Shown here piece by piece: positions 7,901 to 37,560 of a stretch of DNA of 64,000 nucleotides. The stretch comes from Onthophagus taurus (Eukaryota; Arthropoda; Insecta; Coleoptera; Scarabaeidae). The position numbers and the translations under genes were made by a program. The stretch's first letter is position 1. Every line of letters begins with the position of its first letter. The notes beneath the pieces are model-generated. The model was given only the letters and a program-made list of their open reading frames with translations. It was not told where the DNA came from and made no database searches. The stretch lies in assembly GCF_036711975.1 (NCBI RefSeq), contig NC_091971.1:3541501-3605500 (forward strand), written 5' to 3'.

Positions 7901-10900
7901 TCCAAATTCCATGCAAATCCCCACATACACGCACACAAATCCATCACCTATGGGTATTCAAGAAAAGAACTTCCAAGCACCAAGCATCCAATCAACGAAA
8001 CCGACGAATAATCCCGTTATGGGCAATCATATCTCCGCGGCACCTCCACCGACGAATAATCCTATTCAAAATATACAAAATAACGAACCAATCGAAACGA
8101 ATAGACCAAGAAACGATTCTATGCAGCTTCCGGGAATTGCTGGGAGAAGATTATCGCGTCGTGTTTCTGCCGATCGACCGTATTTAGGAAATACTCAACA
8201 ACAATCTTCCATTGATCATTTTGATCATTACAAACGACCTCCAAGTAGAGATTGTAGCGTGGATAGATATTCCAGAGCAGCTGAACGATTAGGTAAAATA
8301 AATACTTTGATATAACGGACTATATTTTTATTGAAATAAAAGTAGAACTAACACTAGATCTAGAGTTTAACCGTTCTTATCTTAAGACTACTTCTGGTTC
8401 TAGTGTTAATTCTAGAACTAGAACCAGAACTAGAAACATTCTGGTTTAGGTCTAGTTCTAGTTTAAGGTTTAGGTTTAGTTCTAGTTTAATGTGTCTAGC
8501 TCTAGGTCTAATGTCACTAGAACTAACATTAGAACTAGAAACATTTGAGTTTAGCCGTACGTCTCTTAAGACGGCTAAACTCAAATGATTCTAGTTCTAG
8601 GTCTAGTGTTAGTTCTAGTTTTACACTAGCACTGTTACTATGTAAAACTAACACTATACCTAGAACTAGAATCATTCGGGTTTAGCCGCACGTCTCTAAA
8701 GACGGCTAAACCCGAATGATTCTAGTTCTAGGTATAGTGTTAGTTCTAGTTTTACACTTGCACTGTCCCTAGAACTAACACTATACCTAGAAACTAACAC
8801 TATACCTAGAACTAGAATCATTCAGGTTTAGCCACACGTCTCTTAAGACGGCTAAACCCGAATGTTTCAAGTTCTGGTTCCAGTGTTAGTTTCAGAACCA
8901 ATTCTTGGTTCTGAAACTGGTTGTAGGTGTAGCATTGGTTCTAATGTTAGTTCTAGAATTAGAACCAGAATTAGAATCGAATTAATTTCTTTTTCTTTTG
9001 TTAGGTGGTTCTCGTCAACCTTCCATAGACAGAACTCGCCCACCAACACCATTAGAAAACGTCCAAAGAGGTACAACGCCGGTACCAACATCTCTAAATC
9101 CAAATCAAACTTCAAACCCCACAAGAAACGGTGGTCCTTCACCACCACTTCAGAATAATCCAAGTATCGGAGTTGGTATTGGAAGTAGTATTGGAGTTGG
9201 TCTTGGGGGTATTGGAGGTATAGCAACAAGGGCGGCGTCTCCTCCTCAAATGAATTCGCCGCCGTTTGAAGACATCATATTGAAAAAACGAAGTTTGGGT
9301 CAAGATATAGTTCCGTCGTTGAATCAGCCGAAAAGAACGGAAAGTCTGCACGTGCCCGCGGGATATGGTGGCAGTGGTGGCGGCGGTATCGGGAACGTAG
9401 CCAAGGTAAGTCGGGATAGTTCATGCGCATTGAGTGCATGAAAATCCGAACGAGACGCAAATAGCAACAGCCAGTAAACGGGACGTGTGGTGCGAGATCG
9501 CATCGTATTGAGAGAGAGTGGTGTTGCTTTGGGACGATGTGGTCCCGCTACGACGACGATGAGGACGAAGCCCTCATGTTCTCGCCTGCACTGATGGCGA
9601 GGAGGGCATCCGAAAGCTGGATAGACACCCCACCACCTCCCATTGAGGTAGAAAAAAAAGAGATAGAGCAACAGATATTTGCGTGGGGGGAAAAGAATAA
9701 GAAAATCATTTTTGAGTCAGTTTAAGGCGGGTTTATACTTTACAAAATTTATTATTTTAATATTAAGAATTTAAAAAAGTAGGTTTTAATTTATGCTTAT
9801 AAAATTCCTCTGCTTTTTAATGTTTTGATGAATCATTTCCCCGAAAAAAATTATTTAAAAAAAAAATTTGGCATTGTTCATAAAGAAAATACGAAAATAG
9901 TTATTTTTAACCTGGTATGTTACCTCATACTAAAATAATAATCGGGATTATTTTGATTTAATTATAATTTTAATGGTCATATGACCTTCCTCTTCCAAAA
10001 ACTAAAAAAAAAGATAAAGATAAACAATTAAAAAGATTAAAAAGAATTCAATCGTTACGCAATCGTCTTCACCTTCAACTTTTTCTGAACTTCTTCTTTT
10101 CCTACACATCAAACAACATTTTTTCCGAAACAAAAAGAATTTTTTTTTTGAACCTATCTTCACAGAACTTAACCCCAACATCCTTATCAAGAAAAAAATC
10201 GATGCCAGATTTTCAAGAATTACCCAGAAGCACAGAACCGATGGCCCGAGAAGAAGTCTCGATGTTAGGTTCGGCTCGGCGCGAAGAAGTTCGAAGACAA
10301 GCGGAAGAACGAGAACGACTTCGTGCGAATCCACTTTTATACCTCGTCAGTCCCCAAGTGAAGGTAAGAACAAAATTAAAACGTTATTTTCTTTTTGTTT
10401 AGAGTATGTTTTAGAAAAAGCATCGATGGCGATCGTCACGCATCGATTTTCGCGTGTAAATAACCTTCGTTTTCCGATATTATCCTCCTTAAGTTCGCTA
10501 AAAGAACTTCTTTTCGCGCATTTTTTTAATTTTTTCAAATATTTTGATTCTCATTACTTTTCCAATTCTTATATATTGTTTTTCTTGTTTTATTTCATTT
10601 TTAATCGATCCGTATTTTTCTTTTTGATCTTTTACTTTCGACTGTCGCCTACTGACTAAGAACTTTCGTAATTTTTGTCTGTTCCTATTGCTACGCAAAA
10701 CAGAGAAACTCTAGGTATGTTAGAATTTAAAAAAAAAAGAAGGAATTAGAAAATTGTGTTGTGTATGTAATCATTATTTTCATTTATTTAACCTTTCAAT
10801 ACACGCGCGCAAACTTTTTGTCTGCGCAATTTCAGTTTTTGATTTCGCACCAACGCCATCTTTTGTTGGCTAGCTGCTTCAATTGACAATATTTAAATGA

Positions 10901-36100: not shown

Positions 36101-37560
36101 CGTCTTCAGACGCAGTGGTCTAGTGTTAGTTCTAGTTTTAGTGCAATAAAAATATGCAACATAGTGATATCTTATGCTAACTAGCGCTACCTACCTTTGT
36201 CACTATAACTAACACTAGACCTAGAACTAGAAACATTCAGGTTTAGCCGTCTTAAGAGACGTATGTCTAAACCCGAATGGTTCTAGTTCTAGATCTAGTG
36301 TTAGTTCTACTTTTCTTTCAATAAAAATATTCTAAATGCTAAACAACATTTAAAACTAGAACTAACACTAGACCAAGGTCTATAGAACATAAGGTTACCC
36401 AATACCGATTCTCCTCCTCTGAGAGGCAAGGTGGGTCAGTGACGTAGCTGGTTCTATGAACAACACAACGCCCTTATATATCTATAAACAAGGACAACAC
36501 GATGCGAGGTTTAAATATTTTATATAGACTGTACCACAGTATAGGCACGTTGGCACGTATCTATCTTTTATTCTGACTGTATCGAACCAGTGACGTCAAT
36601 TTGCGGGGTAATAATCGATACTACAGAGGCATAGGGAATGAGGTAACCTTATGTTCTATAAACCTTGACACTAGACCTAGAAAATATTGGGTTTAGCCGT
36701 GCGATGACGTCACAAAAAATGACGTCAATTCGAAACTTTAAAGTGATTTTTCGGTATTTCCCGACGATTAAAAAAAATTGTCGATTTTTAAACGACATTA
36801 TGATTCTTGAATTATACCAACAAAAATTAAGTTTTAATATAACTTGATTTTAGGCGAGCAGATTGGGGTCTGAAGTAGTTTTAGGAGATCGACCAATTCG
36901 GATTACTTTATTACGAGCTTTAGCAAAATTATCGTTGTATCAAAAAATAAAACTTGCATGGTATTTATTGTTTTCTAGAGACCCTATAAGGTAATTATTT
37001 TAATACCTCATCAAATTATCTTGGAGTAATCATTCATTTGTAGTAAAGAGGAGATTGAAAAGTGTAAAAATCGTGATATGCTCGAACAGCTTTTGGCTGA
37101 TATGTCAGGTGAATACCCCGTTTTGGGAGAAGTTTTTGTTGATGAAAGAGATGCATTTTTAACTTATACATTACAAACGGCTGCCTTAAAAGATCCTGCT
37201 AGGTATATACCGACTGGTAAGATAACTTCAAAATGTATTTACCCCAAAAAAAAATTAATTTTTGTTCTAGAAAATGTGTTGAATGAAAATTTGAGAATAG
37301 TAGCTGTAGTGGGAATTGGACACGCTATTGGAATATCAAAATTATGGCCGATCGATCAGCGATCAAAAATTAAAGAGATTTTGACTGTTCCCCCACCTTC
37401 CATGTCAACGAAAATAATAAAAATGAGCTTCAAATTGAGCATGATGACTTTAGCTTGTTACTTGGCGTATAAATATGTTCCGGTGCCGAAAAGTCTCAGG
37501 GATATATCAAACCAGGCGTTCCAAAAAGTTGCCACTAGAATTAAGGATTACACTTATTAA
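33145..37560 (+). CDS. TRABD: TraB domain-containing protein (TRABD type)
   Basis: Six exons: 33145-33163, 33479-33702, 35179-35430, 36854-36990, 37044-37216, 37271-37560; about 364 residues. The TraB core is visible: TGAKVYVVGTAHFSQES, VLPHIVILELCDARKNIL, APGGEFRVAFKE, LGDRPIRITLLRAL, DERDAFLTYTLQTAA, and VAVVGIGHAIGISKLW. The C-terminus has a hydrophobic segment (LSMMTLACYLAYKYVPVP), fitting the outer mitochondrial membrane location known for TRABD-like proteins. The GTAHFS and GIGH motifs are the proposed metal-binding sites of the Tiki/TraB fold. Introns 3 (1476 bp) and 4 (1423 bp) are enlarged by transposons and palindromes. The last intron is 54 bp with no stop codon, so its retention would add 18 residues in frame. 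Confidence 0.92.
33716..35145. mobile_element. Decayed DNA transposon with about 65 bp inverted ends in TRABD intron 3
   Basis: The left end (GAAGTAACACAACTGTGGCA, about 33722 on) and the complement of the right end (GAAGTAACGCAATTGTGGCA) match over about 65 bp through ACAGTCATAGAA. The interior at 34675-34944 has an open stretch with a DDE-transposase-like block (THMKSWLQNVYYPN, then KSLLLLNSWSGHC), reminiscent of pogo/Tc1-type catalytic cores. Only a fragment of the transposase remains, so the element is a shortened, inactive copy of about 1.4 kb. Confidence 0.7.
35765..36720. repeat. CTAG-rich palindrome repeats in TRABD intron 4
   Basis: Four or more units of the family seen in junctophilin introns, with hairpin cores near 35803-35848, 35925-35970, 36087-36118 (shortened) and 36237-36280, plus a broken unit interrupted by the insertion at 36374-36667. 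Flanking half-repeats CTAGAACTAACACTAGACC are present throughout. Confidence 0.8.
36374..36667. mobile_element. 294 bp MITE inserted into a CTAG palindrome
   Basis: The ends are inverted repeats of 26 bp with one mismatch; each starts CAAGGT, then TATAGAACATAAGG after one variable base. The element is flanked by an exact 9 bp direct repeat ACACTAGAC (36365-36373 and 36668-36676). The direct repeat is part of the palindrome family's own flank, so the insertion interrupts a pre-existing palindrome. No coding capacity. A 9 bp target duplication points to a Mutator-like or similar family, but the end sequence alone does not settle that. Confidence 0.85.

What the first reader, a model, noticed from the sequence alone, without database searches (positions are those of the whole stretch)
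8343..36720. A CTAG-rich long-palindrome repeat family concentrated in introns
Units at 8343-8978, 10948-11321, 35765-36720 and 55605-55826 share a near-perfect hairpin (stem CATTCGGGTTTAGCC, centre ACGTCTCTTAAGACG) set inside half-repeats CTAGAACTAACACTAGACC / complement. Each unit is a single palindrome of roughly 100 bp, units come in short tandem runs, and three of four clusters are inside introns of transcribed genes. Because they are palindromic, transcripts in either direction would form long hairpins, so they could feed small-RNA production or affect splicing. I cannot link them to a named family. They have no obvious terminal inverted repeat separate from the palindrome itself, and no clear target duplication.
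Basis: partly seen in the sequence, partly recalled or inferred. Interest (0 to 1): 0.8.

Follow-up and report, generated by a model that had tools for sequence, protein, structure and literature searches.

The report
Dispersed palindromic hairpin repeats in introns
This is a real family of short mirror-image DNA repeats found in short runs in an insect genome, some inside gene introns; it looks like decaying mobile or satellite-like DNA, with no evidence here that it does a job for the cell.

Summary
Observation confirmed. Four clusters hold about 14 copies (9 near-complete) of a ~105-115 bp palindrome, far beyond chance. Each arm is five degenerate copies of a hexamer (CTAGAA/TTCTAG) in one register plus a 16-nt stem. 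The short centre is directional and lies in either orientation. The repeat runs past the palindrome into recurrent spacers; all 5 exact copies of one block, CAATAAAAATAT, flank units. One cluster fills 90% of a 712-nt intron of a MORN-repeat (junctophilin-like) gene.

Units of one cluster are no more alike than units of different clusters. Co-variation of the two arms is at most a weak trend. No target duplication was detected, and by eye no inverted repeat shared by cluster edges. Best reading: a non-autonomous, foldback/satellite-like modular repeat, spread as short arrays, decaying, with losses at hairpin centres. It fails the one MITE hallmark that could be tested cleanly. A small-RNA role is neither supported nor excluded. 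"Concentrated in introns" cannot be concluded from four clusters. No genome or repeat library was available, so copy number, insertion site and family name stay open.

The parts
8338..8980 (.). Cluster 1: degenerate unit U0 (8338-8415), degenerate hexamer stretch (8412-8512), units U1 (8513-8622), U2 (8641-8753), U3 (8785-8895) joined by C spacers, degenerate tail
   Evidence: 643 of the 712 nt of intron 8293-9004
8322..8333 (-). A block (CAATAAAAATAT) at the outer left edge of cluster 1
8641..8753 (+). U2, best-preserved unit: 46 pairs, RNA MFE -76.0 (+) and -79.7 (-) kcal/mol
10933..10944 (-). A block (CAATAAAAATAT) at the outer left edge of cluster 2
10949..11322 (.). Cluster 2: U4 (10949-11030, centre deleted), C spacer, U5 (11047-11162), B/A spacer, U6 (11209-11322, centre reversed, inner right stem damaged); probably intronic (inference from the reading frame 9974-10402)
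35765..36708 (.). Cluster 3: U7, C spacer, U8, A/B spacer, U9 (right inner arm deleted), A/B spacer, U10 (centre reversed), A/B spacer, U11 (split by the nested element, then cut off at the hairpin tip); in an intron of about 35431-36853
36009..36020 (+). A block CAATAAAAATAT after U8; further exact copies start at 36144 and 36319 (+), after U9 and U10
36374..36667 (.). Unrelated 294-bp element nested in U11: 26-nt terminal inverted repeat (1 mismatch), 9-bp duplication ACACTAGAC
55602..55824 (.). Cluster 4: U12 (55602-55712), C spacer, U13 (core deleted), B block, half arm
55777..55789 (+). B block in its best copy (GCGCTGCATAACG), the only exact match in the window; other B copies are degenerate

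Best explanation
A non-coding, non-autonomous, modular repeat family of a foldback/satellite-like kind. The basic module is a hairpin palindrome whose arms are five degenerate copies of the hexamer CTAGAA and a 16-nt stem around a directional centre. Modules are linked by two kinds of spacer: A/B, with unit starts 151-162 nt apart, and C, with unit starts about 122-144 nt apart where the first unit is complete. They were most likely dispersed as short ready-made arrays, with machinery supplied from elsewhere. After landing they decay. Cruciform or hairpin processing at the symmetry centre would explain the damaged centres and the flipped centres. Shown: module, spacers, array order, damaged centres, lack of local homogenisation. 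Inferred: mobility, trans-acting machinery, DNA-level hairpin processing.
For: Four separate clusters share the module. The A block flanks a unit in 5 of 5 exact occurrences and forms the outer left edge of clusters 1 and 2, after which similarity stops by eye, so the family has at least one edge beyond the palindrome. Units of one cluster are no more alike (mean identity 0.837, 7 pairs) than units of different clusters (0.841, 29 pairs), so recent local duplication did not make the runs (9 of about 14 units used). The arm subtype GAATCATT sits beside C spacers: 8 of 9 arms facing C, 1 of 12 others (Fisher p=0.0004; 21 arms classed by hand; exceptions U8L and U12L; U9R, U0, U11, U13 and the half arm left out). 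Units differ 3-16% from their consensus. By my reading, 5 of 14 units (U4, U6, U9, U11, U13) have lost sequence at or beside the centre. U8 and U10, in one run with the A spacer on the same side, have opposite centres.
Against: No target duplication at any of the 4 clusters, so movement is inferred from dispersal alone. No transposase domain among the 10 reading frames scanned; the rest of the window was not scanned. Only one 64-kb window could be examined; no genome is held. The B block is clear by eye in about 3 of 8 candidate places aligned, and its exact core occurs once; the exact C core occurs in 3 of 5 C spacers. Breakpoints were called by eye, with no chance control.
Confidence: 0.6

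Rival explanations
1. A classical palindromic MITE: a DNA transposon reduced to its two inverted repeats and moved by a transposase in trans, as Made1 relates to the Hsmar1 mariner.
For: Size (~105-115 bp) and near-perfect palindromy resemble the Made1 layout of two inverted repeats round a tiny centre (passages of PMC1784062).
Against: No target duplication at 4 of 4 clusters: longest shared word 5, 7, 4 and 5 nt, reached by 56%, 10%, 93% and 58% of 500 random edge pairs (the 7-nt word of cluster 2 overlaps the A block). In none of the 4 clusters does a unit stand alone. By eye the cluster edges are not inverted copies of each other.
Confidence: 0.2
2. Microsatellite-born repeat: the hexamer CTAGAA (its core CTAG is self-complementary) expanded, a replication template switch captured the stem and centre as an inverted copy, and recombination shuffled the modules without any transposase.
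For: 6-nt register of the arms and a degenerate hexamer stretch at 8412-8512.
Against: Does not by itself explain four separated clusters that share core, spacers and arm subtypes.
Confidence: 0.1
3. Functional hairpin loci: intronic transcripts fold and are cut by Drosha/Dicer into miRNA or siRNA, or act on splicing.
For: Very stable hairpins from both strands; cluster 1 makes up 90% of its intron; Made1 palindromes gave the hsa-mir-548 family (passages). Weak trends: cells with changes on both sides are reached by only 40 of 500 shuffles and inner stems of one unit are slightly more alike than those of different units (p=0.08); U1 and U12 carry matching changes in both arms. Sub-threshold miRNA-family matches exist, up to E 4.5e-10 (region 8300-11400 only).
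Against: Whole arm p=0.16, hexamer part p=0.48 (9 units). Of the five pairing measures, four are reached by 53-216 of 500 shuffles. Rfam: 0 matches at gathering score in the whole window; the best sub-threshold ones fall short (MIR8742 53 bits of 130, spanning two neighbouring units; mir-643 39.2 of 65) and any long hairpin tends to score so (my judgement).
Confidence: 0.07

Closest known systems
Made1 MITE / hsa-mir-548 (passages read, PMC1784062)
   Same: Short near-perfect palindrome with a tiny centre; hairpin from either strand; found in transcripts
   Different: Made1 is 80 bp with a known mariner relative; here units come in arrays, have hexamer arms and extra spacers, and no duplication was found
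Tetris and Galileo, foldback-type transposons of Drosophila (passages read, PMC4079207; PMC3688188)
   Same: Inverted arms containing internal tandem repeats; Tetris repeats also occur as satellite-like arrays, adjacent repeats being as similar as distant ones (though in two of three complete Tetris copies they group together)
   Different: Tetris arms reach 1,735 bp with ~220-bp repeats; here arms are ~50 bp with 6-bp repeats; sequence relation not tested; no duplication found
TCAST-like elements in Tribolium castaneum euchromatin (passages read, PMC3411249)
   Same: Short satellite-like runs (up to tetramers) dispersed near and in genes, 29 of 68 in introns; a transposon-like form is predicted to fold as a hairpin
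   Different: The transposon-like form has ~269-bp inverted repeats and an ACT duplication; sequence relation not tested
Modular MITEs of the pearl family in bivalves (passages read, PMC5139131)
   Same: [quoted passage not shown] in DTC84 a conserved palindrome near the repeat junction
   Different: There the repeats are one part of an element with its own ends; no such outer ends were found here
Palindromic MITE-like repeats of Anopheles gambiae (passages read, PMC3212995)
   Same: Repeats palindromic through their length, without a known parent (six of 32 clusters)
   Different: The 32 clusters are 430-1678 nt long; units here ~110 bp
Dyad-symmetric satellites of Tribolium madens (passages read, PMC13081366)
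   Same: Palindrome-like monomers
   Different: There ~600-bp palindromes in multi-megabase arrays; here runs of a few ~110-bp units

Membership tests
MITE (DNA-transposon derived) | terminal inverted repeats | tested here: inconclusive
   Each unit is itself an inverted repeat; cluster edges are not inverted copies by eye. In cluster 1 imperfect inverted pairs lie inside the edges, e.g. 8392-8430 with 8938-8976, 77% (run on cluster 1 only)
MITE (DNA-transposon derived) | constant target-site duplication | tested here: not met
   0 of 4 clusters above random; the test used 22 nt outside and 8 nt inside hand-set edges
MITE (DNA-transposon derived) | ends shared with an autonomous transposon | not testable with these tools
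   no genome or repeat library held
Foldback element (FB/Galileo/Tetris type) | inverted arms made of tandem repeats | tested here: met
   hexamer register in the arms, on a much smaller scale
Foldback element (FB/Galileo/Tetris type) | target duplication | tested here: not met
Foldback element (FB/Galileo/Tetris type) | related transposase | not testable with these tools
   no genome held; none among 10 frames scanned
Dispersed satellite-like repeat | tandem monomers of regular length in short arrays | tested here: met
   unit starts 159, 151 and 153 nt apart from U8 to U11, 162 from U5 to U6 (A/B spacers); 128, 144, 124 and 122 across C spacers, 98 where U4 lost its centre (coordinates)
Dispersed satellite-like repeat | long arrays elsewhere in the genome | not testable with these tools
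   no genome held
miRNA/hairpin-RNA gene | conserved pairing | tested here: inconclusive
   weak trends only
miRNA/hairpin-RNA gene | small-RNA reads | not testable with these tools
   no reads available
Known Rfam RNA family | score above gathering threshold | tested here: not met
   0 matches in the whole window

The most novel reading that the evidence does not exclude
The hairpin is itself the unit of replication. A family of ~110-bp palindromes whose directional centre lies in both orientations (flip and flop) spreads through a hairpin-ended DNA intermediate opened and resolved at the tip, loosely like parvovirus ends (recalled comparison), rather than by cut-and-paste transposition. The hexamer arms would be binding sites of an unknown trans-acting protein.
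Probability: 0.05. Interest if true: 0.7.

Novelty: new member of a known kind. Interest (0 to 1): 0.3.

Why it matters
If abundant genome-wide, it is a small clean example of palindromic DNA that persists in introns, with damaged tips and flipped centres that could be used to measure how cells process short natural palindromes. It could also be a source of new hairpin RNAs, as Made1 was. By itself it adds one more family to the class of dispersed palindromic repeats.

Tried and rejected
Relatives in other collections: 0 exact matches in viral contigs for three patterns; 11 contigs of genome contigs with one exact 16-mer match each, no more than chance for 257 Gb by my arithmetic, not looked at further; no phage match for unit U2. 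Sequence strings in the paper library: 0 papers for 11 strings (5, 6). Topic searches gave analogues; I saw seven papers as passages and the rest in listings only. None of what I saw carried this sequence.

Co-evolution of arms first looked convincing (U1 has CATTTGAG and U12 CATTTGGG in both arms), but the permutation and shuffle tests show at most weak trends, and the C-to-T changes are at a CpG. Alignment A1 used for one search has the outer arm of U1 out of register. Helitron ends: several B blocks end outward in CTAG, which fits the Helitron rule CTRR (recalled), but CTAG is everywhere in this family and the next base is not constant, so I dropped it. A THAP-type binding motif in the stem was considered from recall and dropped as too short. 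Rfam matches below threshold were treated as hairpin look-alikes.
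Full report
Observation. The two diagnostic words of the finding occur 24 and 19 times in the window with up to 3 mismatches, against 0.00 and 0.26 in shuffles. All lie at the stated places, and a sensitive self-comparison found no further cluster, only one 27-nt stretch. About 14 units can be delimited by hand (U0-U13, degenerate and truncated ones counted). 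Eleven were folded as + strand RNA with z from -6.3 to -16.7 and nine as - strand RNA with z from -6.0 to -19.5. The best unit, U2 at 8641-8753, folds at -76.0 and -79.7 kcal/mol.

Anatomy. The arm consensus AAAACTAGAACTAACACTAGACCTAGAACTAGAAACATTCGGGTTTAGCCG holds CTA at offsets 4, 10, 16, 22 and 28, that is, five hexamers in one register. In the clusters 115 of 247 successive CTA or TAG spacings are exactly 6, in the rest of the window 21 of 1226. Inside lie a 16-nt stem and a centre CACGTCTCTTAAGA that can form a small hairpin of its own (GTCT/AGAC). The centre is directional: 7 of the 9 aligned units carry it in + orientation, U6 and U10 in - orientation. U8 and U10 stand in the same run with the A spacer on the same side and yet have opposite centres.

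Beyond the palindrome. Reading outward from the arms shows three recurrent spacers. The A block has the core CAATAAAAATAT; this 12-mer occurs exactly five times in the window, all five beside units and pointing away from them. It is the outer left edge of clusters 1 and 2, after which similarity ends by eye, and in cluster 3 it follows U8, U9 and U10. The B block (CTAGCGCTGCATAACGATTAAAAC in its best copy) lies on the other side; of eight candidate places aligned it is clear by eye in about three, and its exact core occurs once. The C spacer (about ACACTAGCACTGTCACTAG) joins U1-U2, U2-U3, U4-U5, U7-U8 and U12-U13; its core matches exactly in 3 of these 5. Arms facing a C spacer are of the GAATCATT subtype in 8 of 9 cases, other arms in 1 of 12 (Fisher p=0.0004; 21 arms classed by hand). 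The arrays therefore have a preserved internal order.

Evolution. Nine near-complete units are 76-95% identical to each other; same-cluster pairs (n=7) average 0.837 and different-cluster pairs (n=29) 0.841. Recent local tandem duplication would give higher identity within clusters. Left and right arms of a unit are 0.834 identical, against 0.821 for arms of different units (p=0.16; hexamer part p=0.48; inner stem p=0.08; 9 units). In a count of 46 pairs over the 9 units, 90.5% of cells pair, against 89.8% when partners are shuffled (reached by 87 of 500 shuffles). Cells changed on both sides number 8 against 5.2 (40 of 500), and the covariation score is reached by 53 of 500. Sliding the partners lowers pairing to 30-44%, as it must for a structure read from these sequences. 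So the pairing is mostly what a palindromic ancestor leaves behind; there is at most a weak trend towards matched changes, carried by U1 and U12. By my reading, U4, U6, U9, U11 and U13 have lost sequence at or next to the centre, as expected if hairpins or cruciforms are cut there; this has no chance control.

Boundaries. I searched 22 nt outside and 8 nt inside the edges of each cluster for shared words: the longest were 5, 7, 4 and 5 nt, reached by 56%, 10%, 93% and 58% of 500 random edge pairs. The 7-nt word of cluster 2 overlaps the A block. There is no evident target duplication. By contrast, a 294-bp element nested in U11 (36374-36667) shows a 26-nt inverted repeat with one mismatch and the 9-bp duplication ACACTAGAC, so the region can preserve such marks. 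As its duplication is made of unit sequence, that element inserted after the unit was in place.

Context. The exons on both sides of cluster 1 join in frame ([12 protein letters not shown]), with the donor at 8293 and the acceptor ending at 9004. The cluster fills 643 of the 712 nt of this intron. Cluster 3 lies between the frames 35179-35454 and an exon starting at 36854, intron about 35431-36853. Cluster 2 follows the frame 9974-10402, not tested against any library, and is probably intronic. Cluster 4 was not placed. With two genes involved, no enrichment in introns can be claimed; I made no gene map to measure it. An insect source is supported by a cuticle protein (PF00379, E 7.4e-99). The species is unknown to me.

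Mechanism and filing. The best-supported account is a dispersed, non-coding, modular repeat with hairpin modules, spread as short arrays by machinery supplied from elsewhere and decaying (0.6). A MITE proper is less likely because no duplication was found and the edges do not look like inverted copies (0.2). The closest parallels are the Drosophila foldback elements Tetris and Galileo (passages), TCAST-like elements in Tribolium introns (passages), the modular pearl MITEs of bivalves (passages) and Made1 (passages). Membership in none of these could be shown. A small-RNA role is possible by physics but has no positive evidence here beyond weak trends (0.07).

Limits. That the sequence is not in print rests only on 11 strings searched in the open paper library; repeat consensus sequences are seldom printed in the main text (my judgement).

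Noticed in passing
36374-36667: 294-bp element with a 26-nt terminal inverted repeat and a 9-bp target duplication, inserted into unit U11; BLASTN found no second full copy in the window.
   Followed up: partly
46273-47576: Tandem array, period 190 bp, 6.9 copies, 94% matches.
   Followed up: no
61579-63027: Tandem array, period 179 bp, 8.1 copies, also reported with a 359-bp period.
   Followed up: no
58682-60418: Cuticle protein gene with 5.7 copies of a 303-bp coding repeat; 6 Chitin_bind_4 stretches.
   Followed up: partly
4339-5287: Tandem repeats (102, 207 and 414 bp) inside a long open frame rich in Thr and Glu with a signal-like start by eye.
   Followed up: no
28890-28985: Another inverted repeat (arms of 20 nt or more), AT-rich, unlike the CTAG family by eye.
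   Followed up: no
27813-28282: Two copies of a 247-bp direct repeat, 87% matches.
   Followed up: no
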